Source: a virus. From it: a DNA stretch of 21,698 nucleotides. Positions 206 through 19,761 of the stretch are shown one piece after another. Below the pieces are notes generated by a model, which saw only the letters and a program-made list of their open reading frames with translations, did not search any database and was not told where the DNA came from. Position 1 is the first letter of the stretch, and each line of letters begins with the position of its first letter. The DNA is taken from the IMG/VR virus record IMGVR_UViG_3300031931_000040, positions 1 through 21,698 of that record. One strand, given 5' to 3'. Position numbers and translations under genes: made by a program.

Positions 206-289
206 ATAAAGTGCTATAATCTCCGATACGCGGTACACCTTTTGTACCCCTTAAAATACCTTTCTGGTACACCTTGGAGATCTCAAACA
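206..289 (+). promoter_or_regulatory. Probable integrase promoter with repeated GGTAC sites
   Basis: An extended -10 element, TGCTATAAT at 212-220, has no good -35 box but carries the TGn extension that can replace one. Between it and the integrase start lie GGTACACCTT at 232-241, the same ten bases at 266-275, and an inverted copy, GTACCCC, at 244-250. The first and inverted copies form a GGTAC/GTACC dyad. Sites of this kind ahead of an integrase gene often bind the integrase arm domain or an excisionase; that role is inferred here. A GGAGA ribosome-binding site at 276-280 sits nine bases before the ATG at 290. Confidence 0.5.
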
Positions 290-1345
290 ATGGCATCGTT
301 TAGTATTGAAAAACGAACCTTAGCAAGTGGTGAGTCTCGCTATAAAGCAACGGTTACAGTCAAACACCGCGGCAAAATCGCAAAGCGTTTTTCTAAAACA
401 CATAAGAAGAAGACGCTCGCCACTGCTTGGGCAAAGAATGAAGTCCGAAAATTGGAAGAAGGAGGCGCTCAGGAACGCTCAATCCCCATTGGGCACTTGA
501 TTGATATGTTTATAGAGAATCGAGAGCTGTGGGACAATACAGGGCGTTCTAAGCAGACAATCATCAAGTTTCTACGCGACTGTGACATTGCTAAAATCCA
601 TACTGATGAACTAACATCCAAAGACTTAATTGACCACTGTAGAAACCGCTGCGCCACCGGAACTAAACCTTCAACCGTTTACAGTGATGTTTACTACCTG
701 CGCTCTATCTTCAAAAAAGCCAAACCTGTCTTCAATGTAGCTGCCAACCTTGCCACCATAATTGAAACCACGCCAATTCTCACTGAAATGAAGCTAATTG
801 GTAAATCTGAGAAACGAACTAGACGTCCAACAGCCGGCGAACTAGAACTGCTAAAACAAGCACTAGAAGAACGCGAACAGCGTAGAGAGAACAAAATCCC
901 CTACTCTGATTTACTCGACTTTAGCATTCTTAGCTGTATGAGAGTTGGTGAGGTATGCCGAATTCGATGGGAAGACCTAAACGAAGAGCAAAAGACTGTT
1001 ATCGTCCGTGACAGAAAAGACCCTCGTAAGAAAACCGGTAACCACATGGTTGTGCCACTGTTAGGCGGCGCCTTTGACATTGTCATGCGTCAAGAACGTA
1101 AAAGCGCATGTATCTTCCCCTATAATGAGCGCTCAGTTGGTCGAGGATTTGGAGAGGTTTGCCAAAAGATCGGAATTGATAATCTCAGGTATCATGACCT
1201 ACGCCGTGAAGGTGCAAGTCGCTTGTTTGAGAAAGGGTTCAGCATTGAAGAAGTCGCTCAGGTAACGGGACACCGCAATCTCAACACTCTATGGCAAGTT
1301 TACACTCAGTTGTTTCCGCATAAGTTGCATGAACGAAAGATATGA
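290..1345 (+). CDS. int: Tyrosine recombinase (phage integrase)
   Basis: This 351-residue protein catalyses site-specific integration and excision of the element. The catalytic set is complete: R218 in CMRVGEV, K243 in DRKDP, H302 and R305 in HDLRRE, H328 in TGHRN, and nucleophile Y338 in QVYTQ. Residues 1-60 look like a basic arm-binding domain, and about 65-165 a SAM-like core-binding domain. The frame is open from a TTG at 242, but the ATG at 290 is preferred because it has a GGAGA ribosome-binding site nine bases upstream and yields an N-terminus of normal length. The gene lies at the left edge pointing inward, as in HP1- and K139-type phages, and ends at its own terminator. The family call is secure; the attachment site cannot be read from this window alone. 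Confidence 0.95.
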   Translation: MASFSIEKRTLASGESRYKATVTVKHRGKIAKRFSKTHKKKTLATAWAKNEVRKLEEGGAQERSIPIGHLIDMFIENRELWDNTGRSKQTIIKFLRDCDIAKIHTDELTSKDLIDHCRNRCATGTKPSTVYSDVYYLRSIFKKAKPVFNVAANLATIIETTPILTEMKLIGKSEKRTRRPTAGELELLKQALEEREQRRENKIPYSDLLDFSILSCMRVGEVCRIRWEDLNEEQKTVIVRDRKDPRKKTGNHMVVPLLGGAFDIVMRQERKSACIFPYNERSVGRGFGEVCQKIGIDNLRYHDLRREGASRLFEKGFSIEEVAQVTGHRNLNTLWQVYTQLFPHKLHERKI

Positions 1346-1499: not shown

Positions 1500-1757
1500 G
1501 GTAACTGGCTAAAAAAAATCAAAAAGACAGTTCAAGAAGCACTTGCTACTAAGCTAGGCCAAAGCGGAAGTGTCTACACAACAGAAGAAGATGGCAAACT
1601 TAAGATCATGATGCGTGTCAGCCCAGATTCACTACTCGTTATCCGGTATGTTCCGAACACGCAGGGAAGTTTCTTTACAGTGGTCTCGCTCTACTATAAG
1701 AATGAGCGAGTCGACGGTGATTATGTTGGTCGGTATCTATCTACATTCAAATGTTAA
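1500..1757 (+). pseudogene. 5'-truncated gene remnant, function unknown
   Basis: The frame is open for 85 codons after a TAG at 1497-1499. It has protein-like composition throughout: a lysine-rich helix (KKIKKTVQEALATKLG), then a likely beta-rich part with YTTEEDGKLKI, SLLVIRYVP, FFTVVSLYYK and a C-terminal YLSTFKC. No ATG, GTG or TTG occurs in the first 30 or so codons, and the first ATG (about 1608) would remove a third of the sense sequence. I read it as the 3' part of a gene whose start was lost. It is followed directly by a terminator hairpin, as an intact gene end would be. A 49-residue protein from the internal ATG remains possible. I do not recognise the family. Confidence 0.5.
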
Positions 1758-1780
1758 AAAGGAGCCAGTAGGCTCCTTTT
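1756..1780. terminator. Bidirectional terminator between remnant and minus-strand operon
   Basis: GGAGCC at 1761-1766 pairs with GGCTCC at 1771-1776 across an AGTA loop. Five A residues precede it and four T residues follow. It can stop plus-strand transcripts from the remnant and minus-strand transcripts from the three-gene cassette that ends at 1806. Confidence 0.85.
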
Positions 1781-1805: not shown

Positions 1806-2480
1806 TTAACGAGATAGAAGATTCGCAATGAAATGTTCAGAAACAAACTTGAAGAGCTGACCTTCATCCGTGCTTTCTCCAAGCTTCATGGTTCCCCGGT
1901 CACTTAACTCTACAGTACCTAGCCCTTTAAACTGAATTTTCAACTTCTTGATTTCAAAAGAATGGCCCTCAAAATAATCATACGTTTTTTTTAGCACACA
2001 CTTGTTACTAGATACTGACATCTTCACTGAGCTTTCAGACATAACATCTTTCGACATAACATTTAGTGCAATTACACTAACAGCACCATCCATTAGTTCA
2101 GGGACCCTTTTTGCAAAAGACTTTAAGTCGATTTGAAGAGGGGAAAGTGAACAGCGATAATTCATAGACGAAGAAAGATCATGCTTGAGTTGGTGTAAGC
2201 TTCTAGAAGGATTAACTACCTTTACAAGCCCTTCTCTAACCTCCAGCTCATTCACTAAAAACTCTTGGACGACAGTGCTCTCAGTCTCCCCAAATGGATT
2301 AGTAATTGTTCGCTCTGAAACTACTTCCGTCACGTGCTTAACTAAAATATGGTCGTGCGCAACACGACCTAGCATAAAACCTGATTTTTTGTTTTGAGCA
2401 TATCTCATATCAAGAAAGGCATTCGCGATGTCACGAATACTCATGTCTACCTTGAACTCAAATAGAGAGATACGACTCAT
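1806..2480 (-). CDS. Cassette protein C, unknown function (224 aa)
   Basis: This is the last gene of a three-gene minus-strand operon, starting four bases after the stop of the gene before it. I do not recognise the family. The protein has no signal peptide and no membrane segment. It looks like a mixed alpha/beta cytoplasmic protein: an N-terminal helix with RDIANAFLDMRYAQ, several predicted strands (HILVKHVTEVV, STVVQEFLVNELEV, SFEIKKLKIQFK), and a C-terminal strand-helix ending FKFVSEHFIANLLSR. That ending resembles the C-terminal layout of the neighbouring 372-residue protein. No catalytic motif is visible. A GTAAGGA-like ribosome-binding site lies in the end of the preceding gene. Tight spacing implies co-translation and a shared job with its two partners. 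Confidence 0.85.
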   Translation of the reverse strand: MSRISLFEFKVDMSIRDIANAFLDMRYAQNKKSGFMLGRVAHDHILVKHVTEVVSERTITNPFGETESTVVQEFLVNELEVREGLVKVVNPSRSLHQLKHDLSSSMNYRCSLSPLQIDLKSFAKRVPELMDGAVSVIALNVMSKDVMSESSVKMSVSSNKCVLKKTYDYFEGHSFEIKKLKIQFKGLGTVELSDRGTMKLGESTDEGQLFKFVSEHFIANLLSR

Positions 2481-2484
2481 AGCA

Positions 2485-3603
2485 TTATTCCTTACCTTTA
2501 TCAGAAGTTAACTCTAAGTATGCTTCTGTAGCTGCTTTAAAGAGCAATTTAGACAGCTCTTCTACTTCGTGCTTATCTAACTTGCCTGTAGTCACATTAA
2601 GAGTGCCCTTAGAGCTATTGTAACGATGTACGGCCTTAACTTTATAGCTAAATCCCTTAGACTTTTCTTTATCGTCGAACTTAGCCTCAATTGTGAAACT
2701 GTCGGACATATCTGAACTAAAAATATCTTTACTATCATCTTCAGGGTCAACTTTTATAGTGACCGCTTTTCTGACTTTCCATGACATCTTATAGATATTG
2801 TAGTGATCCCCAGCAAGGCTTTGATAAAAAGATGATGTCAGCAATTTTTTACCTGACAGTGCAGCATTTCTCAATTCGCTTGTCACGTCACTATCTTCAT
2901 CATCTCCGTTCGAGTCACGAACGCTTACATTCACAACATCGTACATTTTGTAATCAAACACATCCAATAACTTAGTAAAAAACTCTGTTCGTAACTCATG
3001 AGGATGATGCTCAAAATCGATTTCTATCGGTTCGACAGATGCAGGCAGCTGCTTGTTCATCTCTTCGATAACCATATCTTTCAACTTTTTTCCCATCTCG
3101 GTAGCAGGGTGCATAATGCTAGTATCTTCAGGCGCTGAAAAATCAATTTCGATTACATCTTTTTTCGGCGTCCTCTGTCGCATTGGAGCCTTAGAGTAAT
3201 CTGTGTCTACATAGTTAGCTTCTACAATGACTTTCTTCCCCGAAACCTTATAGCTAAGGCCCACTTCTTCACTTTCCAATTTAGATGTCAATGACGTCAG
3301 TGCGGTGGAAATTTTTGGGGCTGTAAATTTTGCAGGTAATTCTGTAGTAGCCTGATTATCTCGGCGATCGGGGTTCTCTAATAGTGACGAAAGATATAGG
3401 TAGTCGAAGTAGTCAAAACGCATGGTTTGTACCATATCCATAAGCATTGGCTTGGTGCTGTCTTGGGCAACATAGATCCCTTTCTTAGATAAGAATGAAA
3501 TCAAGTGCTCAGGCTTTACCCTCTGAGCAATCAGACCGTCACGGATACTCTTATCATTCATAAAGTAAAGGCGATTGCCGACTTTTTTATTTTCGCTGCT
3601 CAT
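2485..3603 (-). CDS. Cassette protein B, unknown function (372 aa)
   Basis: This is the middle gene of the three-gene cassette, starting two bases after the stop of gene A and ending four bases before gene C. The protein is rich in Asp, Glu and Lys, lacks signal or membrane segments, and matches no family I can name. Residues 15-80 are probably helical (IRDGLIAQRVKPEHLISFLS, then a Met- and Tyr-rich stretch). Residues 95-170 look beta-rich, followed by an acidic linker near residue 240 (DSNGDDEDSD). The C-terminal 60 residues form strands and a long amphipathic helix (EELSKLLFKAATEAYLEL). Position between integrase and repressor, where P2-like prophages often carry cargo, suggests an accessory role, possibly phage exclusion. 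That is inference from context only. Confidence 0.85.
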   Translation of the reverse strand: MSSENKKVGNRLYFMNDKSIRDGLIAQRVKPEHLISFLSKKGIYVAQDSTKPMLMDMVQTMRFDYFDYLYLSSLLENPDRRDNQATTELPAKFTAPKISTALTSLTSKLESEEVGLSYKVSGKKVIVEANYVDTDYSKAPMRQRTPKKDVIEIDFSAPEDTSIMHPATEMGKKLKDMVIEEMNKQLPASVEPIEIDFEHHPHELRTEFFTKLLDVFDYKMYDVVNVSVRDSNGDDEDSDVTSELRNAALSGKKLLTSSFYQSLAGDHYNIYKMSWKVRKAVTIKVDPEDDSKDIFSSDMSDSFTIEAKFDDKEKSKGFSYKVKAVHRYNSSKGTLNVTTGKLDKHEVEELSKLLFKAATEAYLELTSDKGKE

Positions 3604-3605
3604 GT

Positions 3606-4604
3606 TTACATTAACCCTACTTCGACGTCAGAGAATTGAGGTACAAATTTGTCAATCGTATTTGCTTTTAGCTTTTCCTTAAGCTCCTTAATTTGTTCCT
3701 CGCTGTAGCCAAGATCTCCAAAGTACTTGGCAATTGCTGCTTGTAAGTTTAAAGCCCCATTTTTATTACGCTTAACTAACTTAATCTTGACTGAGCCTTT
3801 GTCATTTAGAATCTGATAGTAAGATAACGCATCTAACAGATAGACAAATTCTTCTACTGTGTCGCCTTGTTCCATGTAGTAAATCACATAGCCACCCGCA
3901 TCAGTATTTTCAGCTTTATCATGCTTAACGATAATCCAAGAAGAGAACAGAACCTCTAGAGTTGCTGGTTCAGAGTAGTCTTGACTGAAGTGGTTTTTGT
4001 TTAGGGTTTCACTCGGGTGGAAGAAGCAATACTTGTCACTCTGAGGCAACAGACCATCTGCAGTCATTAGCTTTAAATCTTTAGCAATACTATTCAACTC
4101 TGTGATTTTTTCCGGGCTCATCACATATACCTGAGAATAGCCTTCAAGATGATTCACTTTAGTGCGTTCTCTGTCTGATTGATTAACATCATCTAAAATA
4201 TCATCAAAGTTCCCAGTGTATTTACCACAATGGTTGTAGACAAACAGCATTCCATGTACTTGATGGGAATCTACTGGTTGATACAAGGCCTGCCAGTTTG
4301 GATTATATTGGGCACAGTTAGTTGCATACGTTAGTGAGTGCATCGCTTTACGAATTTGCACTTTGTTAATAGAGGTCTTCTGATAGCTCTTCAGGTCTGT
4401 GTTAACGTATTTGACTTGGTTATCATACGGATCACGGTAGTGGAACACACAATCAGAAGGATGTGAGTCTTTACCATCGTGTTCTTCCGGTGTGACACAA
4501 TCCCAGCTATGATCTTGCGCTTCTTTTCTTCCCCACTTAAAAGCGCTAAAAAGATTCTTCGATACTAACTCTGCCATTTTTGCAATGTTGGCTGTTTCAC
4601 TCAT
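3606..4604 (-). CDS. Cassette protein A, possible PD-(D/E)xK nuclease (332 aa)
   Basis: This is the first gene of the minus-strand cassette. Residues 1-80 fit the order of a PD-(D/E)xK nuclease fold: E12 in a leading helix, D51 in HPSDCVF at the start of a strand, then D70-L-K72 in NTDLKSY on the next strand. A helix after this (KVQIRKAMHSLTYATNCAQ) matches the usual fold. The rest is unassigned; it contains a hydrophobic GMLFVYNHCGKY segment and a C-terminal Lys/Glu-rich helix. If the reading is right, the protein cuts or binds DNA, and proteins B and C would be its targeting or control partners. The ATG has GGAG about eleven bases upstream. The terminator at 4653-4674 separates the gene from the repressor gene, so the cassette probably has its own promoter, though none is obvious. 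The gene call is firm and the nuclease call tentative. Confidence 0.85.
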   Translation of the reverse strand: MSETANIAKMAELVSKNLFSAFKWGRKEAQDHSWDCVTPEEHDGKDSHPSDCVFHYRDPYDNQVKYVNTDLKSYQKTSINKVQIRKAMHSLTYATNCAQYNPNWQALYQPVDSHQVHGMLFVYNHCGKYTGNFDDILDDVNQSDRERTKVNHLEGYSQVYVMSPEKITELNSIAKDLKLMTADGLLPQSDKYCFFHPSETLNKNHFSQDYSEPATLEVLFSSWIIVKHDKAENTDAGGYVIYYMEQGDTVEEFVYLLDALSYYQILNDKGSVKIKLVKRNKNGALNLQAAIAKYFGDLGYSEEQIKELKEKLKANTIDKFVPQFSDVEVGLM

Positions 4605-4650: not shown

Positions 4651-4674
4651 AAAAGGCACCCCGTAGGATGCCTT
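4651..4674 (-). terminator. Terminator after the repressor gene
   Basis: AAGGCA at 4653-4658 pairs with TGCCTT at 4669-4674. Read on the minus strand, the stem is followed by a T-run (complement of the A-run at 4649-4654). It lies just beyond the repressor stop codon and before the three-gene cassette. It would limit read-through from the repressor into the cassette, though the six-pair stem may leak. Confidence 0.75.
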
Positions 4675-4680
4675 GAATTC

Positions 4681-5571
4681 TTAAATCACCGCCTTCATAA
4701 CGGTGGTGACTACTTTTCCTATCACCGCGAACTCATTGAGTTTCTCCTCGTTCACGATGAATGAATCATATTCTTCTTTATTGTCTGAAATTACCTCATA
4801 GCCTTCTGCCATGATGTCGTACTTCAGGCGTTTGATGTAAACATGCTTACCGATACGAACAACATACACACCGTGCTTAACTGGGTGATCAAGCTCACGA
4901 ATATCCACTAGAACTTCATCACCGTCACTCAACGTGTCTTCCATTGAGTCTCCGTGGCAGATAATGATGCGCGCTGTTTCTTCTGTTAAGCCAAAGCGCT
5001 TTAGCCACATACAAGGCAGGAATTCTGTTCTTAGTTGATACTCAGCGTCATTTTGAGCACCAAAACCACAAGAGGCATAAACGTTATAGACAGGTACAGC
5101 ACACATATCCCCCATCTCAGAAGCAAGCTTTACTGATTTCACGTTAGATAGTTCTGTAACGTTATCTTTGTCATATTTCCGGCGAAGAAGCTTCATTTGC
5201 TCAATAAAGTCACTTATAGGCGTACCGCCTGGATTACTTTCTACAAACTTTCTCAGTTCAAGTTCCAAAGCTTCTTCTGTAAGCGTCGTGTGCTCCAGTA
5301 TATCAGCAACTAATGGCACAGATGTTTTTTCCGATGGTGGGGGCAGATCCATCAGCTGTTGGGCTTCGTCTTTATCTGTGACGTACTTCTCAATCAGCTG
5401 TTTTTTCACATCTGGGTGAAAGTTGGAAATATGGTACTCCAAAGCTCGAGAGCTCTCCTTCGAACCTCGACTTAACCAATTGTTTCTTCTGGCTTTTTGA
5501 GCAACGCCAGATGATGAATTAGCCATTCCAGCTAACCCTACCAATTCTGTACTAAGAAACCACTCTTTCAT
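4681..5571 (-). CDS. Phage repressor: Mu-type DNA-binding domain plus S24 (LexA-like) peptidase
   Basis: This 296-residue protein is the lysogeny repressor. Residues 1-60 resemble the Mu repressor/MuA-type winged-helix domain (EWFLSTELVGLAGM, then GVAQKARRNNWLSRG). The C-terminal half from about residue 160 is an S24 autopeptidase: S209 in HGDSM and K247 in YIKRL form the Ser-Lys dyad, and C168-G169 in YASCGFG fits the self-cleavage site. Such repressors cleave themselves when RecA is activated by DNA damage. The frame extends to a GTG at 5598, but the ATG at 5569-5571 starts the conserved domain directly. The gene diverges from the PrtN-family gene, an arrangement like the PrtR/PrtN pair that controls pyocins. 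The long linker at about 60-155 is unassigned. Confidence 0.9.
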   Translation of the reverse strand: MKEWFLSTELVGLAGMANSSSGVAQKARRNNWLSRGSKESSRALEYHISNFHPDVKKQLIEKYVTDKDEAQQLMDLPPPSEKTSVPLVADILEHTTLTEEALELELRKFVESNPGGTPISDFIEQMKLLRRKYDKDNVTELSNVKSVKLASEMGDMCAVPVYNVYASCGFGAQNDAEYQLRTEFLPCMWLKRFGLTEETARIIICHGDSMEDTLSDGDEVLVDIRELDHPVKHGVYVVRIGKHVYIKRLKYDIMAEGYEVISDNKEEYDSFIVNEEKLNEFAVIGKVVTTVMKAVI

Positions 5572-5669
5572 AAAAACACCAAAAGCACAGCAAAACACCT
5601 AGACGAACACCGGTGAAATTAACTAAGACTATACCACGTCAGTGGTTTAGTGGAAATGAGGCTAACTAC
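5572..5669. promoter_or_regulatory. Divergent repressor/PrtN control region
   Basis: This 98-bp gap separates the repressor and the PrtN-family gene. It holds three AACACC copies at 5575-5580, 5594-5599 and 5606-5611, an 8-bp palindrome CACCGGTG at 5608-5615, and a dyad ACCAC-gtca-GTGGT at 5633-5646. These are candidate operator half-sites for the repressor. Clear -35/-10 pairs could not be assigned with confidence. TGAGG at 5656-5660 is the ribosome-binding site for the PrtN-family gene. Confidence 0.5.
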
Positions 5670-10456: not shown

Positions 10457-11515
10457 ATGGGCGTAGAAGTCATTGAACAAAATGGTATGTTTAACACCAT
10501 ACTGAATGGGAATTTAATTCATTCTGAAAAAATCTATCATGCAAATCAGGATAAGAATCAAATAGAACAAGTTAACGAAGAAGTTCTTTTATTGCTTCTA
10601 ACCTGCAAAGTAGCAGACTTACCTACCCCATTCGCTGTAGATGGTGATTACTTTCCGAAAAATGGAAGTGAAATTGATTATTTGACCATCAAAAATAGAG
10701 GTGAGGGTTGTATCCTATCAGTCATTATGACTAAAAAGCTCATCAACTGGAAACAACTATTCACAATAGGAGAATATTCCGATCACATACAAACAATATC
10801 TTCGAATATAAGCACTGATATCGATGAAGGATATGCTTATATTAGCTGTACATTAAAGCTCGCTCCTACTGATAACTTAAATGAAAAAGCAACTTTCGCA
10901 TCCAACCTACTCCTAGAAGCAAACAACGACACTTTAAACAAACTGAACAAAGCAATGTTGGACGAGTATATACTTGAGACTTTCCAATTCCCCCGAGAAT
11001 ACCAATCAATATGTAGCCAATATCTAATCTGGTTTGGTGAGTTCCTCGAGAACATTGGGATTGATGCTCTAGTTTCAGTGAACAATGATGGCGAACAAAC
11101 TCAAGTAAAAATTTCATCAAAACACAGTGAACAAGTTCTCGAAAAGATTGAAGAGCTTTTCTCGCAATACATCGCTCTCCCTTATGCAGAATTTTTACCC
11201 GCAGCTCACCCTTTAGACCCACAACAACAGTTCATGGTGACGCAGTTGCAAACGCAGATAAATCATTTCAAAGGTCAACTTGAAGTGAAAAGTTCAGTAA
11301 TTCAACTAAAAGAAGCAACTATTCAAGGGCTGCAACGAGAAATTCAGTCACAACAAAACATTATTGATGTCCAAAAAAATCAATTGCTACTTATTGAAAG
11401 TAAACAAGGTGATGAAGAGGTAGAGCTATTTGGTGGCGTTATCAAGCTTGGCGAACTTGTGTGGGGACCGATCAAATTTAGCCCCAAGAAGCTACTCGAA
11501 AAAACTAACGAATAA
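10457..11515 (+). CDS. AT-rich cargo gene: C-terminal coiled-coil protein, unknown (352 aa)
   Basis: I do not recognise a family. The protein has no signal peptide or clear membrane segment. Residues 1-240 look globular and alpha/beta, including an EFLENIGIDALVSV segment followed by a helix with LEKIEELFSQYIALP. Residues about 255-315 are Gln-rich with heptad-like spacing (QLQTQINHFKGQLEVK, IQGLQREIQSQQNIID) and likely form a coiled coil. The C-terminus has FGGVIKLGELVWGPIKF. The ATG has AGGCAAAG before it. Base composition is clearly more AT-rich than the early and baseplate genes on either side, suggesting separate acquisition. It lies in the slot where head genes would begin, with a second cargo gene behind it. 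A phage-exclusion role is possible but unsupported by any motif. Confidence 0.8.
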   Translation: MGVEVIEQNGMFNTILNGNLIHSEKIYHANQDKNQIEQVNEEVLLLLLTCKVADLPTPFAVDGDYFPKNGSEIDYLTIKNRGEGCILSVIMTKKLINWKQLFTIGEYSDHIQTISSNISTDIDEGYAYISCTLKLAPTDNLNEKATFASNLLLEANNDTLNKLNKAMLDEYILETFQFPREYQSICSQYLIWFGEFLENIGIDALVSVNNDGEQTQVKISSKHSEQVLEKIEELFSQYIALPYAEFLPAAHPLDPQQQFMVTQLQTQINHFKGQLEVKSSVIQLKEATIQGLQREIQSQQNIIDVQKNQLLLIESKQGDEEVELFGGVIKLGELVWGPIKFSPKKLLEKTNE

Positions 11516-11593
11516 ACCTCTCTCAAGTGTAAAAATTAATAATCTGTATTGATAGTTAGTGTATACATAATGCATTACTTACAAAGTTATATA

Positions 11594-12256
11594 ATGATAG
11601 ATATGTTTAAGAAAAAATCTCGTTGCAAAGAAAACTCTTTAGAAATGGAAATGCTACTCAGAAGAGCGCATGAGTTATTAGCGAACAATAATATTGAAGG
11701 TCTAAAAGATCTACTTCGTACAATATGGCGGAGGCTACAATCACGATTGATGCTAGAGCCCTACTTACTTGCAGATCATGATGCCTGTGGTGACATAGCA
11801 TTTAATTTTTGTAGTTTTAGTGAACTACAAGGTTGTTATCAAGGACAAGCCAACAGCTATATTTCATTAATTGAACCAGTCCTCACTTTCCCATGGCATC
11901 CAAATAGAATAATTAACAACCTCGGTGTTATAGGCGAGAATAGAATAAACGGAAGATTCACTTCATCCTCCAATCACTCTGCAAATTATTACTGGCCACT
12001 TATGTTAATAAAGGTCACTGGTGGTAACCATTCAATTGCGCAGGGCATACTAATGGGAGAAGGTGAAATCGCCTTAGAAGACTGGTATAACCTTACTCCA
12101 CTTTTAAAGAAATACAGGTGCAACGGACCGCTCTGGATTAATAATGATACAAACAAAATTGTAATGCACTGTGATTGTCCAGAACTTGGTATGGCATGGG
12201 AAGTTAGTCGCTTATTAGCTTCCGTTTGCCCTCCCCCTTTACAAGCAAGTAAGTAA
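11594..12256 (+). CDS. AT-rich cargo gene, DUF6710-like (about 220 aa)
   Basis: The frame is open from a TTG at 11549, with ATGs at 11570, 11594 and 11603; none has a good ribosome-binding site, so the start is uncertain. The central part FPWHPNRIINNLGVIG, and especially IKVTGGNHSIAQGILMGEGE, recalls proteins grouped as DUF6710, which I recognise from memory with limited certainty. The conserved GGNHS with an acidic stretch after it could form an active site, but no reaction is known to me. Several cysteines occur near the C-terminus (MHCDCPELG). The gene lies 78 bases after the coiled-coil gene, shares its AT-rich composition and ends before a hairpin, so the pair probably moves and is expressed together. 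Confidence 0.75.
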   Translation: MIDMFKKKSRCKENSLEMEMLLRRAHELLANNNIEGLKDLLRTIWRRLQSRLMLEPYLLADHDACGDIAFNFCSFSELQGCYQGQANSYISLIEPVLTFPWHPNRIINNLGVIGENRINGRFTSSSNHSANYYWPLMLIKVTGGNHSIAQGILMGEGEIALEDWYNLTPLLKKYRCNGPLWINNDTNKIVMHCDCPELGMAWEVSRLLASVCPPPLQASK

Positions 12257-12362: not shown

Positions 12363-12524
12363 GCTCAAATAAACCTACCGAAATGAATTGCGCCTCTGAT
12401 TGCGCAAAATTGCAGTGTTGAATTTTGGTGTGGAGGGAGGGGTGAGCCGACGCAAGCCCCAAGCGCCTACCCCACTACCGAATTTTCCTCATTCTGCAAA
12501 ATTCTGATTTTTTCCTTGGATTTG
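12363..12524 (+). promoter_or_regulatory. Unusual control region ahead of the baseplate operon
   Basis: Three ATTGC copies start at 12387, 12399 and 12409, about one helical turn apart; the third reads ATTGCAGTGT, matching the pyocin P-box form ATTGnnGTnn that I recall for PrtN. Two AT-rich dyads follow: CAAAATT at 12405-12411 with AATTTTG at 12421-12427, and GAATTTT at 12480-12486 with AAAATTC at 12498-12504. They flank a GC-rich segment of about 52 bases (12428-12479). No clear -10 box, terminase site or gene remnant could be identified. The region may be a late promoter, a packaging or recombination site, or a deletion scar. Confidence 0.5.
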
Positions 12525-13400
12525 ATGGGTTTTCTGATGTGGAAACGACAATACGAGCACGGACGATGGAACGGGCATAAGCTCAACATCCTATCGACGG
12601 CCATTGATGGCGGTCAGCGTCTGCACGTTGTTGAAATCCCTTATGAAGACCTGCCACACATCAAGGTGATGGGCAGCAAGGCCCGTACCTTCAACTTTGA
12701 AATTGTCTTTGTTGGCACGAGTTCCCTTGCAGATGCCAATGCCTTTATCGCGAACTGTGAAGCCTCTCCAGAAGGCGAACTCGAACACCCTTGGCTTGGT
12801 GAGTTAAAGCTCGTCTACCAATCTTATTCCCAAAACATCAGCACCAAACGCGGCTTGGTCACGCTTAGCCTTTCGTTCGTGCGTGCCGGCATATCTCCAA
12901 CTATCTCTGCGCCAAGCATTGTGAGAACCAGAGAGCAGGCCAGCGCCGTCGAAAAAATCTCTACTAAGGTGTTCGTCAAAGATGTGGAAGAAATGAGCGT
13001 AGCTGAAATTGCTCAAACTCAAGATGACTTCACCAAGATGCATGATGCCCTGGTAGACATCACTAATCGCCTTGATTTGGATGCTGAGAAGAAGCAGGAC
13101 ATCAACAACGCACTAAACACAGCCTACTCAGCGATTAGCAGTATCAGCAATGACCCTAAAGACTTTGCCAGCCTAATGAGCATCGCTGTGGATGCCGTTG
13201 CAGAAGGTGTGCAGCTAGAGCCTGACTCAATCAGCGAAGCCGCAAATCATGCACGTTCGGCTCAGGCGTTCATGTTGGGGTTGATGGGAGAAGAACCGCC
13301 CAGCACTCACTACAACACTCAATTGGTGACCGCCGCGGTCAAGATGAGCGAAAGCCTCACTGAGCTTGAAGCGGTTGACACTTACGATGTAACCGCATAG
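12525..13400 (+). CDS. Tail/DNA circularisation protein, Mu gpN-like
   Basis: This protein of about 291 residues resembles the N-terminal domain of Mu gpN (DNA circularisation N family), a baseplate hub protein. The N-terminal 110 residues show the family pattern: WNGHKLNILSTAIDGGQRLH, VVEIPYEDLPHIKVMGSKAR and FNFEIVFVG. It is shorter than Mu gpN (about 490 residues). The remainder is helical. The frame also opens at a TTG at 12516 and has another ATG at 12537; 12525 is a compromise, with no strong ribosome-binding site. In Mu-like phages the tape-measure gene lies immediately before gpN; here there is only non-coding DNA. It heads the baseplate operon. Confidence 0.85.
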   Translation: MGFLMWKRQYEHGRWNGHKLNILSTAIDGGQRLHVVEIPYEDLPHIKVMGSKARTFNFEIVFVGTSSLADANAFIANCEASPEGELEHPWLGELKLVYQSYSQNISTKRGLVTLSLSFVRAGISPTISAPSIVRTREQASAVEKISTKVFVKDVEEMSVAEIAQTQDDFTKMHDALVDITNRLDLDAEKKQDINNALNTAYSAISSISNDPKDFASLMSIAVDAVAEGVQLEPDSISEAANHARSAQAFMLGLMGEEPPSTHYNTQLVTAAVKMSESLTELEAVDTYDVTA

Positions 13401-13408
13401 GGGGAGAA

Positions 13409-13732
13409 ATGAATAGCAATGTCATTTTAAACGATCTCAACGCCCTGCTATCTGCGCTTGATACCAACATAGGAGAAGTAACAGCCAACTCTACCGTAGA
13501 AGCTCTGGAGCTGTATGAAAGTCTGACTTCTCTCAAAGGCAACGTACAAACTCAGCGCGATAAAGTCATTGCAGGTATTACGCCGCACCGAACCGTGGTG
13601 AAACCAAAATACACACCGGCACTAGCCCTCGCTCATGATGAGCAAAGTAGCGAAGCGATGGTGACGGCTTTGAACGCATTGCAACATCCACTCTTTATGC
13701 GTGGTGATATTGCCGTGAGGAATGTGAAATGA
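13409..13732 (+). CDS. Baseplate-operon protein, unknown (107 aa)
   Basis: GGGGAGAA just before the ATG is a good ribosome-binding site, and the gene overlaps the next by an ATGA. The protein is mostly helical with conserved-looking VEALELYESLTSLKGNVQTQ and a short C-terminal tail ending FMRGDIAVRNVK. I do not know its family. Its place between gpN and the gp44-like hub suggests a small baseplate or assembly protein. Confidence 0.8.
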   Translation: MNSNVILNDLNALLSALDTNIGEVTANSTVEALELYESLTSLKGNVQTQRDKVIAGITPHRTVVKPKYTPALALAHDEQSSEAMVTALNALQHPLFMRGDIAVRNVK

Positions 13733-14661
13733 AGAAAGTCACATTACTTATCAGCGGTAACCTTGTACCGTTTTACTCGGCATCATTGAACTATTCTGTA
13801 GAGCAGCTTGCGCACACCTTCAGTGCAGACATTCCGCCGATGAGCATTACCTCACCTTTGCCTGTTGAATTTCGTTTAGATGATAAGCCAATTCTGATCG
13901 GGCAAATTGATGATACTGATTCAAGCACCGAAAGCAGCGCTCACAAACTAACAATCACTGGCCGCTCCAGAAGTGCCAACATGATTGATTCACGTATCAC
14001 TATGGATGCGCTCTATAACCAGAACGTAGCCAAGCTGCTGGCAAACATCGCGAAACCGTTCGGGCTGTCGGTACAAAGCTGGATAGGCGCCATGCCCCTG
14101 GTTGATGAGTTTCAAATTACGGCTGAATCACCCGTTGATAACATTGCTCAAATCATCCGTGAGCAGGGTTACATGCTGATTGAGCGCAATGGTGTTCTAA
14201 CTATTGAGCACACAGCTCACGCAGCCATACAAGGTATTGGCCTACAGGTGGGTAAAAACATCGAAAGCCTTGGTATTAAGCGTACCTTTAACAAGCAGTT
14301 CTACCACACAGAGGTTCAAGGTGCGTGGGATGATTCATACGCGGTCATCACCAACCCTAACGTGAATAAGCAAAGAGTCATGGTGATCATCTGTGACCAA
14401 TTACAAAACGCAAAGGCCTGTTTTTCTCGCGCCAGGTATGAACGTGACCTCGCCATAGCCGAAAGCCTCACCGCAACTAGCACGATTGCTGACGTGTTCC
14501 AAGAGCTTGCTATTGATGGATTAAACCGAGTGATACGAGTGATGGATGAGCAACAAGGTTTTAACGAAATGCTCGTAATTAAAGCTTTAAGCCTACGGGT
14601 ATCCGAAAGCTCAGCAAGTACATCGATTGAACTATTCAGACCATTTAAGGAGCAGAAGTAA
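13729..14661 (+). CDS. Baseplate hub protein, Mu gp44 (gpP)-like
   Basis: This 310-residue protein matches the Mu gp44/gpP hub family, structural relatives of T4 gp27 and P2 gpD. It begins with a strand-rich MKKVTLLISGNLVPFYSASL, followed by a barrel-like part with PVEFRLDDKPILIGQIDD and ITGRSRSANMIDSRI. The middle has AKLLANIAKPFGLSV and the C-terminal part a QEL-rich helix and strands. It would form the central hub that holds the spike. Both ends overlap neighbours (ATGA at the start, TAATG at the end), typical of this operon. Length is near that of the family. Confidence 0.88.
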   Translation: MKKVTLLISGNLVPFYSASLNYSVEQLAHTFSADIPPMSITSPLPVEFRLDDKPILIGQIDDTDSSTESSAHKLTITGRSRSANMIDSRITMDALYNQNVAKLLANIAKPFGLSVQSWIGAMPLVDEFQITAESPVDNIAQIIREQGYMLIERNGVLTIEHTAHAAIQGIGLQVGKNIESLGIKRTFNKQFYHTEVQGAWDDSYAVITNPNVNKQRVMVIICDQLQNAKACFSRARYERDLAIAESLTATSTIADVFQELAIDGLNRVIRVMDEQQGFNEMLVIKALSLRVSESSASTSIELFRPFKEQK

Positions 14662-15266
14662 TGCATCGCTCCATCGCGCAAAAGCAACAGCAACAACGGT
14701 TAATGGCGCGTATTAAGAATATTACCGGAACAGGAACCGTGACAGGCGCAACCACCGGAATGCTGCAAATCAAAACTGCCACAGGTCGTACGAACGACAA
14801 GATAAAGCGCGTCCACAACTACGGGTTTATGAGCCGCCCTTTAGTGGGCGCCAAAACCTACAACCTGTTTATTGGCGGGGTGACGGCTCGTGGTGTGACC
14901 GTGAATGTGGAAGACGAACGCCACCAAATTGAACTAGAGCCTGGTGAAGTGGCAGTGCTGGACGATAAAGGCAACCTCGTCCACTTCACCAATAACGGCA
15001 TCAAAATTAACTCAATGGCGAAGATTGAGGTCACATCAACGCAAGAAACCTCGGTGAAAGCACCATCAGTTTCAATAACAGCACCAAAGTCATCATTTTC
15101 AGGTGATGTAAGCATAGGCGGAAGTTTATCTGTGACGAAAAATATCAGCGCAGCCGGCGCTGTTGGTGGTAAATCAGGGACGTTTGGTGGGGTAAGTGTC
15201 GAGAAGCATACACACAACTACCAAGATGATGGTGCAGGCAAAGTAACACAAGGGCCCAATCAATGA
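14661..15266 (+). CDS. Baseplate spike protein, Mu gp45-like
   Basis: This 201-residue protein is the tail spike that pierces the outer membrane. The N-terminal OB-fold part contains GTGTVTGATTGMLQIKT and NYGFMSRPLVGA. A repetitive beta-helical part follows (IEVTSTQETSVKAPSVSITA, then GDVSIGGSLSVTKNI). Near the end, H183 and H185 in KHTHNYQDD form the HxH motif that binds an iron ion at the tip in P2 gpV and related spikes. The gene overlaps the hub gene before it and gp46 after it. It is close to Mu gp45 in length. The call is secure. Confidence 0.9.
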   Translation: MHRSIAQKQQQQRLMARIKNITGTGTVTGATTGMLQIKTATGRTNDKIKRVHNYGFMSRPLVGAKTYNLFIGGVTARGVTVNVEDERHQIELEPGEVAVLDDKGNLVHFTNNGIKINSMAKIEVTSTQETSVKAPSVSITAPKSSFSGDVSIGGSLSVTKNISAAGAVGGKSGTFGGVSVEKHTHNYQDDGAGKVTQGPNQ

Positions 15267-15649
15267 ACCGCTTTAACCTTAACGCCCTAACTTCCCCCAT
15301 TAGTTCAAAAGAGGGGATGACCCACGCCGTACAACAAAGTGTTCATAACTATGCTGAGTCTACTCAGAACGATAGAGCAAGAATGGACAGCGACGAGCGC
15401 GGCGGTACTTGGAGCAACGAACTACTGAACATTGTCGGCTCACGTGATTGGACACTTAAGCGCGATAAAGTCACAGCTCAAACCATCAGCTTAGCCAGGC
15501 GTTTTTATCAAGATGCCCTGCAATGGCTGATTGATGAAGGCTACGCCAAACGCATTGATGTCACCACATGGGAAGAAGCACCTAATGTCATGGGACGAAA
15601 CGTTATGATCACCTTAACCGATGGAACCAAGTTTGAGGTTGAGCTATGA
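15263..15649 (+). CDS. Baseplate protein, Mu gp46-like
   Basis: This 128-residue protein fits the phage GP46 family, related to gp25/gpW wedge proteins. Hallmarks are GTWSNELLNIVGSRDWTLKR near the middle and LARRFYQDALQWLIDEGYA, followed by a C-terminal strand (NVMITLTDGTKFEVEL). It overlaps the spike gene by four bases and the gp47 gene by four. It would form part of the inner baseplate wedge. Confidence 0.88.
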   Translation: MNRFNLNALTSPISSKEGMTHAVQQSVHNYAESTQNDRARMDSDERGGTWSNELLNIVGSRDWTLKRDKVTAQTISLARRFYQDALQWLIDEGYAKRIDVTTWEEAPNVMGRNVMITLTDGTKFEVEL

Positions 15650-16692
15650 GCACTCAACGCAGCCTGAAATACCTAATTGACCGAGCCAAAGCAACGCTCA
15701 TAGCGAAAACAGGTCAAAACAACCCTGCTATTGATGCCATCGCCAGTGCCATTGCAGGTGTTAGCTATGGGCAGTATGGCTATCAAGACCTGTTGTTTCG
15801 AGAGCTACACCCAGAAAGCTGTTCGGAGGCTTGGTTATACCTACATGCAACAAGGCATAAAGAGCCTCGCTTACAACCTCAGTTCGCTACGGGGCCAGTG
15901 AGCTTTTTCCAGACAGGGGCGGTCGTGACCATCCCCAAAGGTCGAGTACTGGTTGATGATGCCGGCAACGAATACAAAACCGTTCGTGAGCAAAATAGCG
16001 ACGAAGCGGTAGCGGTCATCGCGCTTAAAGCAGGTACGGATAGCAATCTACCCAACGGGGCAAAGCTTAAGCTGACAGAAGCACTCAACGGCGTAGCCCC
16101 AAACAACATTGTTAGCCTCGGCATTAGTGGCGGTAGTGGCATTGAAGAGCTTGAACACTGGCGAGGCCGCGTAGTTAATGCCTTCAATAAAAACCAAATG
16201 ATCGGTAAACGTGAAGACTATGAGTCATGGGCGATTTCTGCTCATGCTGATGTCGATTTTGCTTGGGCACTCGATAACACCCCAAAGCGCGGCATGGTTG
16301 AGGTTTATATAGGTGCAAGAAATAACAACCCTGCCGTCAGTGATGAAGTGATGAACCTGGTCCAGCAAGCATTTGAGACAAACCGACTTGCAGGTTGTCA
16401 CCCATTTGCTCATCAACCTCAGAAAATGCCGATTGATATTGAGATCCAGGGCATTGAAGACGAAAGCGTACGTGAAGATGTTATCACCGCACTGGAAGAC
16501 TTAATCAAAGGCAAGATGGGAGTGATCGATGAAGAGACGCAAAAACCGGAACCAATTACCCCAACGGACATCACTCTGGTGGTAGCAGAGATTACCAGTG
16601 GTTTTATTCTCAAAGCGCCACTTGATGAAGTGACCATTGAGAACAATCAAATTCACACAATAGGAGGCGTAACATGGACACCTCCGACTTAA
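15646..16692 (+). CDS. Baseplate wedge protein, Mu gp47-like (J family)
   Basis: This 348-residue protein matches the baseplate J/gp47 family. It has the typical N-terminal helix with ISAIASAIAGVSYGQYGYQD-like layout, the beta-rich centre FFQTGAVVTIPKGRVLVDDA and the LKAGTDSNLPNGAKL loop. Then comes GRVVNAFNKNQMIGKREDYE and WALDNTPKRGMVEVYI. The C-terminus ends on strands. In Mu and P2 it joins the hub to the fibre-bearing wedges. Four bases overlap the gene before and 19 bases overlap the next. Length is normal for the family. Confidence 0.92.
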   Translation: MSTQRSLKYLIDRAKATLIAKTGQNNPAIDAIASAIAGVSYGQYGYQDLLFRELHPESCSEAWLYLHATRHKEPRLQPQFATGPVSFFQTGAVVTIPKGRVLVDDAGNEYKTVREQNSDEAVAVIALKAGTDSNLPNGAKLKLTEALNGVAPNNIVSLGISGGSGIEELEHWRGRVVNAFNKNQMIGKREDYESWAISAHADVDFAWALDNTPKRGMVEVYIGARNNNPAVSDEVMNLVQQAFETNRLAGCHPFAHQPQKMPIDIEIQGIEDESVREDVITALEDLIKGKMGVIDEETQKPEPITPTDITLVVAEITSGFILKAPLDEVTIENNQIHTIGGVTWTPPT

Positions 16693-17225
16693 TCATTGAT
16701 TACAGCGAGAGCGACTTTGCTGACTCTATCCGTGCACTACTACCCAAAGGCGATTACTGGCAAGAGGTCGAAAACAAAGAGCTGACCAATCTGATTGAGG
16801 GCATGGCACAAGACTTCAAAACCACGCATGACGAAGTAGAGCTATCCCTACTTGCAGAGCTTAAAGATGATCTCTTTGGCTGGAAAATCAATGACTATCA
16901 AGACCTGCTGTTTGAAGTGACAGGAAAAGAAAGCGGCACGGTTTACGACGACGTAGCAACACCGAATCTCATTTATGTCTCGCTTAAGTCATCGTCACGC
17001 TCAAGCGCCGGGGATGCATGGAAAGCCTTTGAAGATAAGCGACTACCGCATACTGAGATTCAATGGCTCTACAACAACGAGACCACGCTTTACGTGCAAG
17101 CCGCTAACTACCAAGTCACGCGAAATATTCATCAATACGAAATATGCCCAACCATCGAGCACTTTACAGGGCTTGCAAATGCGCGGCATATCCGGACAAC
17201 ACATACACACGAGGTAACTCAATAA
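16674..17225 (+). CDS. Baseplate/tail protein, Mu gp48-like (DUF2313)
   Basis: This 183-residue protein fits the gp48/YmfQ-like family. It shows SIRALLPKGDYWQ near the N-terminus, a NLIEGMAQDFKTTHDEVELSL helix, the segment IYVSLKSSSRSSAGDAWKAF, and a C-terminal RNIHQYEICPTIEHFTGLAN with following basic tail. In P2 the corresponding gene I joins the fibre to the baseplate. The gene overlaps gp47 by 19 bases and ends at the first base of the fibre gene's ATG. Confidence 0.88.
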   Translation: MDTSDLIIDYSESDFADSIRALLPKGDYWQEVENKELTNLIEGMAQDFKTTHDEVELSLLAELKDDLFGWKINDYQDLLFEVTGKESGTVYDDVATPNLIYVSLKSSSRSSAGDAWKAFEDKRLPHTEIQWLYNNETTLYVQAANYQVTRNIHQYEICPTIEHFTGLANARHIRTTHTHEVTQ

Positions 17226-18040
17226 TGGCGCTAGTAATTACAGATGCAGGTCGAGCTGCATCCGTTCGTGCCGGTGATCTGGGTGTCGAGTTTAAAATAT
17301 CTCACATCAGTATCGGCACAGAAGGTTATACCCCAACCAAAGACCAAACCGAGCTACGCGCGGAAATCATCCGCAAGCCTGTGATTCGTGGCCGCATCAT
17401 TAAAACAGGCCATCTTCACTTTGAAGCCGACTTCGTTGGAAAGGAAGAGTTTGAAGGCAAAGAGATCGGTTACCACTTAGACGATGAAGCCCAAACTCTA
17501 TTTGGTGTGGACAGTGACGATGGCAAAGTGATGACTCTAAAGCGTGCTAACTCCATCGTAACTGAGGTGTTTGACCTAAACCTTTCAGCATCACGCATCG
17601 ACAATATTACTGTCGAAGTGGCAACGACTCCTTACGCAACTGAAGAGACACCTGGTATTGCTGAAGTAGCGACAGATGCAGAAGTGGCCGCAGGCGTTGA
17701 TGATGAGCGAATAGTAACAGCGAAGAAATTAAGCACGGCGTTGAGTAGAAATAGCGAGCCAAACGTCATAAAAACCCAACACGATGAACTAGCGCTCAAC
17801 AAGCTCAACATTTTTAAAGTGCTCAAGCCTATAAAACTGCCTACACCTGGTAGCGATTGCGTATGTCGCGTTCGCGTGGAGATACCTGTTTCTCCAGGGG
17901 GAGAAAAACTATCGTTTGATGCACCAGACGGTAAACAAATTACGATTCAATCAACAGGAGAGAAAGACACAACGGTGAACGTGGTGACATCTCATGTAGA
18001 GTATTTATTCATGTTTATTGACGGGGAGTGGTACGTATGA
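17225..18040 (+). CDS. Tail fibre protein
   Basis: The start at 17225 is set by overlap with the gp48 stop and by the conserved fibre beginning MALVITDAGRAASVRAG; the frame continues upstream inside gp48. Residues 1-140 match the tail-collar fibre N-terminal domain that anchors to the baseplate. Residues about 140-175 (YATEETPGIAEVATDAEVAA) resemble a Phage_fiber_2 repeat. The C-terminal 90 residues are beta-rich and probably trimerise. With 271 residues it is short for a fibre, so receptor binding may lie partly in the next gene. It overlaps that gene by four bases (ATGA). Confidence 0.9.
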   Translation: MALVITDAGRAASVRAGDLGVEFKISHISIGTEGYTPTKDQTELRAEIIRKPVIRGRIIKTGHLHFEADFVGKEEFEGKEIGYHLDDEAQTLFGVDSDDGKVMTLKRANSIVTEVFDLNLSASRIDNITVEVATTPYATEETPGIAEVATDAEVAAGVDDERIVTAKKLSTALSRNSEPNVIKTQHDELALNKLNIFKVLKPIKLPTPGSDCVCRVRVEIPVSPGGEKLSFDAPDGKQITIQSTGEKDTTVNVVTSHVEYLFMFIDGEWYV

Positions 18041-18486
18041 GCACAGACTTAAAAAATCCTGCGGCTTCAGGAATGAATTATAAAGTTGTTAATCAACCGT
18101 CAATCACCATGCCAGACAGTACAGAAGGCGGGAATTCTGGATGGGTATACGGTGCAATGTTCTTTTCTACCGCTAACGGTGCGGTTTTGAATATTAGTGC
18201 GCCAAGCGACCTACACTGTATCATTAACATGGCCTATTCGACCGGAAGCCCAAACACTGTCCATATTAGAAGACTCACAATAGATGGAGTTGACATTCTT
18301 TTGCCGCCAGATAGTGGCGGTGATACTGCATTTGTGTATCTGAATAAAAACAATGCTAGTTCGGAGTCATCAAATTCCTATCCATCCATTTTTGCACTGA
18401 TTGGAGTGCCCTTTAAAACCTTAACAATTGAGTTAGGCGGTAGCGGTGCTGCTCATATAGGTTGGTGTGACGTAGAGGTCCAGTAA
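18037..18486 (+). CDS. Probable receptor-binding or fibre-associated protein (149 aa)
   Basis: The ATG at 18037 overlaps the fibre stop codon; an in-frame GTG at 18028 is less likely. The product is Gly/Ser/Asn-rich and beta-rich, with GWVYGAMFFSTANGAVLNIS, TVHIRRLTIDGVDILLP and a C-terminal GWCDVEVQ. This looks like a compact beta-sandwich, as found in fibre tips. No family is recognised. Its position between fibre and chaperone suggests a distal fibre subunit or receptor-binding domain. Confidence 0.75.
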   Translation: MSTDLKNPAASGMNYKVVNQPSITMPDSTEGGNSGWVYGAMFFSTANGAVLNISAPSDLHCIINMAYSTGSPNTVHIRRLTIDGVDILLPPDSGGDTAFVYLNKNNASSESSNSYPSIFALIGVPFKTLTIELGGSGAAHIGWCDVEVQ

Positions 18487-18839
18487 TGCATAAACAAGTT
18501 AAATTCATCATCGATGGCAAAGAAGTGAATGTTCGCCCTCAGAACGGAGAACGCTACACTCAACAACTGTTTCTTAACGGTAAGCTCGTATGTGCTCTAA
18601 CTCAAACGGCTACAACACCAGAGCAGCGAGAGCAAACAAAAATTGATCAAGAAAAAGTATGGCGCAATCAAGAGCTCGATTACGTTGATGCGAAAAACTA
18701 CGGCGAAAGCTTCCCATATTTCGCAGAGGTTGAAGCTTACAAACAAGTACTGCGTGACTACCCATCGACACCAGACTTTCCGCATGGCGAACGTCCACAA
18801 CGTCCAGTTACAGATAGCGGAACTCCAATCATCATTTAA
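18486..18839 (+). CDS. Tail fibre assembly chaperone-like protein
   Basis: This protein of 117 residues has an N-terminal strand part (VKFIIDGKEVNVRPQNGERY), then a helix with VWRNQELDYVDAKNYGESF and the motif YKQVLRDYPSTPDFPHGERP. That motif resembles phage tail assembly chaperones, whose common core is an R-x-x-LL or ELDY helix followed by LRD-hP. It overlaps the previous gene by one base and ends 12 bases before a strong terminator. Such proteins help fibre trimers form and sometimes remain attached. Confidence 0.75.
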   Translation: MHKQVKFIIDGKEVNVRPQNGERYTQQLFLNGKLVCALTQTATTPEQREQTKIDQEKVWRNQELDYVDAKNYGESFPYFAEVEAYKQVLRDYPSTPDFPHGERPQRPVTDSGTPIII

Positions 18840-18850
18840 TACCAACATCA

Positions 18851-18875
18851 AAGCCCCACTCTGGGGCTTTTTTTT
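18851..18875 (+). terminator. Strong terminator of the baseplate-fibre operon
   Basis: AAGCCCCA at 18851-18858 pairs perfectly with TGGGGCTT at 18862-18869 across a 3-base loop, and eight T residues follow to 18875. It closes the operon that starts at 12525 and separates it from the lysis genes. Confidence 0.95.
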
Positions 18876-18983
18876 ACTCACACTTCTATATCCCACCACT
18901 AGAAATCCAACCACTACCCTTTAAAACTCAGCAATTTAGACTGGCTCATGGGGGCACTATTCACAAGCTACGAGAGAAATTAA

Positions 18984-19226
18984 ATGAACGAAACTGGAGC
19001 AAAACCGCTTGTCGTATCGCTGTTAGATGCCACCGGGATAAAGAAAGCCATCACCTCTATCTTATCCACCATGGTGAGTTTTGGTGTGAATGATATCGCG
19101 CAGTTAATAGCCGCGGCAGTAGGTATCATCACTGGCATTATGGCGATTAAACATTACGCCGTATCCATCAAGCTCAACAAAGCGAAGCTAGCTAAATTAA
19201 ACGCTCAAGAGGATGGCGCCGCATGA
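18984..19226 (+). CDS. Holin
   Basis: This 80-residue protein has a central hydrophobic stretch (IAQLIAAAVGIITGIMAIKH) that forms one membrane segment, with a moderately hydrophobic helix before it (ISTMVSFG-like) and a charged C-terminus (LNKAKLAKLNAQEDG). Small size, position before an endolysin and four-base overlap with it support a holin. With a SAR endolysin it would act as a pinholin or control the timing of depolarisation. A gap of about 110 bases separates it from the preceding terminator; a promoter should lie there, though none is clear. Confidence 0.8.
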   Translation: MNETGAKPLVVSLLDATGIKKAITSILSTMVSFGVNDIAQLIAAAVGIITGIMAIKHYAVSIKLNKAKLAKLNAQEDGAA

Positions 19227-19759: not shown

Positions 19760-19761
19760 TC

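What the first reader, a model, noticed from the sequence alone, without database searches (positions are those of the whole stretch)
1806..4604. Three-gene minus-strand cassette of unknown families between integrase and repressor
Three genes of 332, 372 and 224 codons are packed with gaps of two and four bases, bracketed by terminators at 4653-4674 and 1761-1776, and none matches a phage structural or control family I know. The slot between integrase and repressor is a common cargo position in P2-like prophages (established knowledge). A complete, tightly coupled set with a possible nuclease first suggests a multi-gene anti-phage system; that role is inferred.
Basis: partly seen in the sequence, partly recalled or inferred. 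Interest (0 to 1): 0.75.

Follow-up and report, generated by a model that had tools for sequence, protein, structure and literature searches.

The report
Known 3HP anti-phage cassette in prophage
Three genes carried by a Vibrio P2-like prophage are a copy of 3HP, a known but unexplained bacterial anti-virus system, and structure predictions suggest that it works as a DNA-cutting enzyme paired with a DNA-gripping protein.

Summary
Three minus-strand genes (332, 372 and 224 codons; gaps of 2 and 4 bases) lie between a P2-type integrase and an S24/cI repressor. The system is not new. The genes match, in order, PADLOC Hp1, Hp2 and Hp3 (E 9e-60, 1e-22, 1e-4), the Rst_3HP system. Rousset et al. 2022 describe a three-gene system with no clear predicted domain that protects E. 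coli against P1. They also report the slot between cI and integrase in K139-like Vibrionaceae phages as a defence hotspot. Two Vibrio cyclitrophicus phages carry the trio in the same slot, annotated Rst_3HP. In viral contigs with a recognisable Hp1 gene, 77 of 79 have the ordered trio; the other two stop at a contig end.

What I add is a mechanistic lead. Hp1 is predicted (pLDDT 88) as a PD-(D/E)xK nuclease with invariant E3, D51 and D70-x-K72; its best PDB match is the Hachiman nuclease HamA. Hp2 is predicted (pLDDT 85) with an RdgC-like fold. I therefore propose an RdgC-like DNA clamp (Hp2, perhaps with Hp3) that directs or licenses a nuclease. The RdgC link is structural only; sequence profiles do not support it. 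Activity of this copy is untested.

The parts
3606..4604 (-). hp1 (332 aa): predicted PD-(D/E)xK nuclease; invariant E3, D51, D70-L-K72, plus invariant C36, H42, H48, C97
   Evidence: PADLOC Hp1 8.9e-60; PHROG 7059 3e-88; AlphaFold2 pLDDT 88.2; Foldseek best PDB hit HamA 8vx9, E 1e-3, prob 0.98; invariants in 48 sequences
2485..3603 (-). hp2 (372 aa): predicted N-terminal helical bundle (about 17-74) followed by an RdgC/CENP-N-like alpha/beta region
   Evidence: PADLOC Hp2 9.6e-23; PHROG 6531 6e-50; AlphaFold2 pLDDT 85.1; Foldseek RdgC 2owy 5.5e-6, 2owl 2.5e-5, CENP-N 6.4e-5; phage RdgC 7e-7 in BFVD
1806..2480 (-). hp3 (224 aa): third 3HP subunit, fastest evolving; fold not determined here
   Evidence: PADLOC Hp3 1e-4; PHROG 5850 2e-20; 58% identical to Rst_3HP__Hp3 of PQ189388; mean pairwise identity 22%
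4653..4674 (-). terminator-like hairpin at the end of the repressor gene, just upstream of hp1
1761..1776 (.). inverted repeat GGAGCC-AGTA-GGCTCC with A and T runs, downstream of hp3; likely terminator, not scored by the scan
   Evidence: sequence; absent from the list
242..1345 (+). tyrosine integrase, left border of the cargo slot
   Evidence: Pfam Phage_integrase 3.9e-20
4681..5598 (-). S24-type (cI/LexA-like) repressor, right border of the cargo slot
   Evidence: Pfam Peptidase_S24 5e-13; PHROG 4 transcriptional repressor

Best explanation
The trio is a 3HP (Rst_3HP) anti-phage cassette carried as cargo in the integrase-repressor defence hotspot of a K139-like P2-related Vibrio prophage. 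Most likely mechanism: Hp2, possibly as a complex with Hp3, forms an RdgC/RexA-like clamp on DNA and recognises a DNA state made during phage infection, such as ends or recombination or replication intermediates. It then places or licenses Hp1, a metal-dependent PD-(D/E)xK nuclease, which cuts DNA and stops the infection. Shown here by computation: family identity, slot, conserved three-gene unit, nuclease fold with invariant catalytic residues, and RdgC-like fold of Hp2. Inferred: complex formation, the trigger, the substrate, whether host DNA is also cut, and activity of this copy.
For: 3HP profiles match all three proteins. The same genes sit in the same slot in Vibrio phages PQ189388 and PQ189295, annotated Rst_3HP. 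The published slot and published activity against P1 are in PMC9122126. The ordered trio is present in 77 of 79 viral loci and the two exceptions are contig ends; it also occurs on plasmids, in filamentous Pf-like phages and in genomes. Hp1: high-confidence model with a helix-strand-strand-helix-strand core, Foldseek hits dominated by nucleases when judged by probability (HamA 0.98, FokI 0.82, Can2 0.69, MGME1 0.66), and E3, D51, D70, K72 invariant. Hp2: both PDB RdgC structures rank first, phage RdgC proteins rank first in the viral library. Depositors of Pf-like phage 54-4 call Hp1 'nuclease related' and Hp3 'RdgC-like'. The RdgC fold already serves phage exclusion in lambda RexA (PMC11077077).
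Against: The Hp1-HamA Foldseek match is borderline (E 1e-3) and profile comparison to HamA finds nothing. The Hp2-RdgC TM-scores are low (0.35-0.40, rmsd 8.7-9.7), and profile comparison to RdgC is no better than permuted decoys, so this may be fold similarity without descent. Hp3 was not folded. No promoter was recognised upstream of hp1. No experiment was done.
Confidence: 0.66

Rival explanations
1. 3HP acts as a RexAB- or RdgC-like regulator or exclusion factor: Hp2 and Hp3 coat DNA and block phage recombination or replication, and Hp1 is a structural or inactive partner.
For: RdgC-like fold of Hp2; RexA binds DNA non-specifically, and rexA genes of several phages sit next to a cI-like repressor (PMC11077077).
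Against: Hp1 is the most conserved of the three proteins (37% mean pairwise identity against 28% and 22%) and keeps E3, D51, D70 and K72 in all 48 sequences, which argues for catalysis.
Confidence: 0.12
2. 3HP is an abortive-infection system like Hachiman (a special case of the nuclease reading): the nuclease is held back by Hp2 and Hp3 and released on infection to destroy all DNA in the cell.
For: HamA is the best PDB match of Hp1; a nuclease kept with tightly coupled partners in one operon.
Against: No helicase or ATPase partner: no family hit in Pfam for the trio. Hp1 has no significant HamA profile match.
Confidence: 0.3
3. The trio is phage housekeeping (recombination or replication genes of the P2-like phage itself), not defence.
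For: An RdgC-like fold and a nuclease could serve phage recombination.
Against: The same trio lies in unrelated elements: P2 cos-side hotspot, Pf-like filamentous phages, plasmids, a Xenorhabdus contig. The same slot in Vibrio phage L9-1 holds a methyltransferase plus NsnABC homologues instead. Published activity against P1.
Confidence: 0.04

Closest known systems
3HP / Rst_3HP (PADLOC Hp1-Hp2-Hp3; Rousset et al. 2022, PMC9122126)
   Same: Three profile matches, same order, prophage cargo; Vibrio phages PQ189388 and PQ189295 carry it in the same slot.
   Different: Distant from the E. coli-type copies (Hp1 about 36%, Hp3 near the detection limit); lies in the cI-integrase slot of a K139-like phage rather than in the P2 cos-side hotspot.
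Hachiman HamA nuclease (PDB 8vx9)
   Same: Best structural match of Hp1; PD-(D/E)xK nuclease in a defence operon.
   Different: No HamB helicase; no HamA profile match; partners are an RdgC-like protein and Hp3.
RdgC (PDB 2owy, 2owl)
   Same: Best structural match of Hp2 in PDB and among viral proteins.
   Different: No Pfam or profile-profile match; Hp2 has its own N-terminal helical bundle; ring formation untested.
Lambda RexAB exclusion system
   Same: RexA has the RdgC-like fold and excludes phages from a prophage (PMC11077077).
   Different: Three genes with a predicted nuclease, against RexA plus RexB; no direct comparison of Hp2 with RexA was made.
Kinetochore CENP-N (yeast Chl4), partner of CENP-L (Iml3)
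   Same: Next best structural match of Hp2 after RdgC; Hp2 also has an N-terminal helical bundle.
   Different: Eukaryotic centromere protein; no sequence relation found; the parallel of Hp2-Hp3 with CENP-N-CENP-L is only a suggestion.

Membership tests
3HP (Rst_3HP) | Matches to Hp1, Hp2 and Hp3 profiles | tested here: met
   E 8.9e-60, 9.6e-23, 1.0e-4, near full length for Hp1 and Hp2; Hp3 is weak but 58% identical to an annotated Rst_3HP Hp3
3HP (Rst_3HP) | Three adjacent genes in the order hp1-hp2-hp3, same strand | tested here: met
   window ORFs; 77 of 79 viral loci, exceptions at contig ends
3HP (Rst_3HP) | Protects against phage (P1 for the E. coli copy) | not testable with these tools
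   published for another copy (PMC9122126)
K139-like Vibrionaceae defence hotspot (cI-integrase) | Cargo between integrase and cI repressor of a P2-related Vibrio phage, varying between phages | tested here: met
   same slot holds 3HP in PQ189388 and methyltransferase plus NsnABC homologues in L9-1
PD-(D/E)xK nuclease (Hp1) | Conserved acidic residue and D/E-x-K on adjacent strands of an alpha-beta core | tested here: met
   D51, D70-L-K72, E3 invariant in 48 sequences; strands 47-57 and 64-74 in the model
PD-(D/E)xK nuclease (Hp1) | Metal-dependent DNA cleavage | not testable with these tools
   needs biochemistry
RdgC family (Hp2) | RdgC fold | tested here: met
   Foldseek rank 1 and 2 in PDB, rank 1-3 in BFVD; TM only 0.35-0.40
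RdgC family (Hp2) | Sequence profile match to RdgC | tested here: not met
   no Pfam hit; hhalign against 31 RdgC sequences no better than decoys
RdgC family (Hp2) | Ring-shaped dimer around DNA | not testable with these tools
   no complex prediction available
Hachiman | HamB helicase partner | tested here: not met
   no helicase or other family in the trio
RexAB | RexA match plus RexB partner | not tested
   no RexA profile comparison and no membrane prediction were run

The most novel reading that the evidence does not exclude
3HP is a nuclease system built on a heteromeric RdgC/RexA-type clamp: Hp2 and Hp3 are two diverged RdgC-fold subunits, a prokaryotic counterpart of the CENP-N-CENP-L (Chl4-Iml3) pair, that embrace phage DNA and deliver the PD-(D/E)xK nuclease Hp1. 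This would be a new mechanistic class of defence and link an antiviral system to the fold ancestry of kinetochore proteins.
Probability: 0.25. Interest if true: 0.72.

Novelty: new member of a known kind. Interest (0 to 1): 0.42.

Why it matters
As a gene set it is a further, divergent copy of a catalogued system in a published hotspot. What matters is the lead on how 3HP works: in the literature searched here it is still described as three genes without clear domains. A predicted nuclease active site and an RdgC-like partner make its mechanism directly testable with a few point mutants.

Tried and rejected
Phage housekeeping: rejected because the trio occurs in unrelated elements and the slot varies. 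RdgC membership of Hp3 and Hp2 by sequence: hhalign against RdgC sets gave nothing above decoys; some RdgC ORFs were wrongly picked, corrected. Homology of Hp3 to the C-terminal half of Hp2: repeated similar registers but not significant. HamA membership of Hp1 by sequence: none (one search had used HamB by mistake). Pfam, NCBIfam and PDB sequence searches gave no meaningful hit; MavQ and OspA hits are treated as chance. A search for more loci with the Hp2 alignment could not be run because it is too variable.

Full report
Observation. The three ORFs exist at the stated coordinates with the stated sizes and gaps. A tyrosine integrase and an S24-type repressor flank them, and other genes of the window are P2-like: gpA replication protein, CII-like regulator, baseplate J. 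The hairpin at 4653-4674 is a minus-strand terminator that ends the repressor transcript; the one at 1761-1776 is visible in the sequence but was not scored.

Identity. PADLOC profiles Hp1, Hp2 and Hp3 match the three proteins in order. The closest phage records are two Vibrio cyclitrophicus phages, 70% identical over the trio at DNA level, with the genes between integrase and a LexA-like repressor and notes reading Rst_3HP__Hp1, Hp2 and Hp3. Rousset et al. [quoted passage not shown] That the first of these is 3HP rests on the name (Rst = Rousset, 3HP = three hypothetical proteins; own knowledge) and on the P2 location; the main text of the paper does not use the term 3HP. DefenseFinder lists Rst_3HP among systems found mostly on prophages (PMC9090908).

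The slot. Vibrio phage L9-1 carries, between its integrase and CI gene, a cytosine methyltransferase and three genes matching NsnA, NsnB and NsnC of PADLOC instead. So the slot exchanges defence cargo.

Co-occurrence. A profile-guided scan of viral contigs returned 80 loci; 79 contain a recognisable Hp1 ORF and 77 of these the complete ordered trio, often overlapping by a few bases; the other two are cut by the contig end. In 52 of 79 a P2-type portal gene lies within 3 kb, the cos-side P2 hotspot. Some loci are near duplicates of each other or of contigs fetched earlier; 47 Hp1 sequences remain after removing close copies. The trio also occurs on plasmids of Enterobacter, Aliarcobacter, Azospirillum and Vibrio, and in filamentous Pf-like phages of Pseudomonas. 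In sampled genomes it is rare: 4 of 395 in the order of a Vibrio host.

Hp1. The AlphaFold2 model is confident (pLDDT 88.2, pTM 0.89). Its first 125 residues have a helix (2-21), strands 47-57 and 64-74, a helix (81-98) and a strand (114-124). Foldseek ranks the Hachiman nuclease HamA first (E 1e-3, probability 0.98), with FokI, Can2, MGME1, BamHI, EndoMS and MspJI among the hits; other hits by E-value are unrelated proteins, mostly with low probability. E3, D51, D70 and K72 are invariant in 48 diverse sequences and sit on the helix and the two strands expected for a PD-(D/E)xK site. C36, H42, H48 and C97 are also invariant and might bind a metal; this is inference.

Hp2. The model is confident outside the termini (pLDDT 85.1, pTM 0.75): a helical bundle (17-74) then mixed alpha/beta. 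Both RdgC structures in the PDB rank first and second (5.5e-6, 2.5e-5), CENP-N follows (6.4e-5), and three phage RdgC proteins lead the viral library. TM-scores are low, so domain-level resemblance is what can be claimed. Profile comparison to 31 diverse RdgC sequences is not better than permuted decoys (14 of 60 reach it). The RexA structure paper describes the shared fold of RdgC, RexA and the Iml3-Chl4 kinetochore pair (PMC11077077); Chl4 corresponds to CENP-N (own knowledge).

Hp3. It varies most (mean identity 22%, against 28% for Hp2 and 37% for Hp1), as might be expected of a recognition part. Depositors of Pf-like phage 54-4 name it RdgC-like. Hp3 aligns to residues 169-279 of Hp2 in a similar register in several comparisons, but this is not significant (7 of 60 decoys reach it).

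Mechanism. The simplest reading is a clamp plus nuclease. RdgC and RexA bind DNA without sequence preference; Hp2, perhaps with Hp3, would hold DNA in a state typical of infection and bring Hp1 to it. Steps shown by computation are family, slot, co-occurrence and folds; trigger, substrate and outcome for the cell are inferred. Whether it acts selectively on phage DNA or abortively cannot be told.

Novelty. New member of a known kind. The mechanistic inference was not found in the literature that could be searched, which excludes most subscription journals and nearly all preprints.

Noticed in passing
window 1500-1757 (+): Open frame of 85 codons after the integrase without a start codon at its head (GNWLKKIKKTVQEALATKLG...STFKC); looks like the 3' end of a gene left by an earlier cargo exchange. 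No match in phage records or held loci.
   Followed up: partly
L001 20002-21004 (Vibrio phage PQ189295): hp1 is split by one extra base relative to the otherwise identical hp1 of PQ189388, so this 3HP copy may be inactive, or there is a sequencing error.
   Followed up: yes
window 10457-12256 (+): Two genes between the replication and tail genes: a 352-aa protein with no family and a 235-aa DUF6710 protein (E 3e-34); a possible second cargo slot, no PADLOC hit.
   Followed up: partly
L133 1368-6686 (Vibrio phage L9-1): The integrase-CI slot holds a type II cytosine methyltransferase and homologues of NsnA, NsnB and NsnC.
   Followed up: partly
L021 and L023 (Pseudomonas phages 54-4 and 99-2): Complete 3HP trios at one end of 13-kb filamentous Pf-like phages, next to a repressor; unusual cargo for such small phages.
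   Followed up: no
window 12516-21655: Tail, lysis and a putative lipoprotein gene are present but no head genes (portal, terminase, capsid) were seen in the window; the record is probably a fragment, since the related phage PQ189295 has them after the tail module.
   Followed up: no
L082 9050-12082: An insertion of about 1.3 kb separates hp2 (slightly shortened) from hp3 in an otherwise intact 3HP locus.
   Followed up: no
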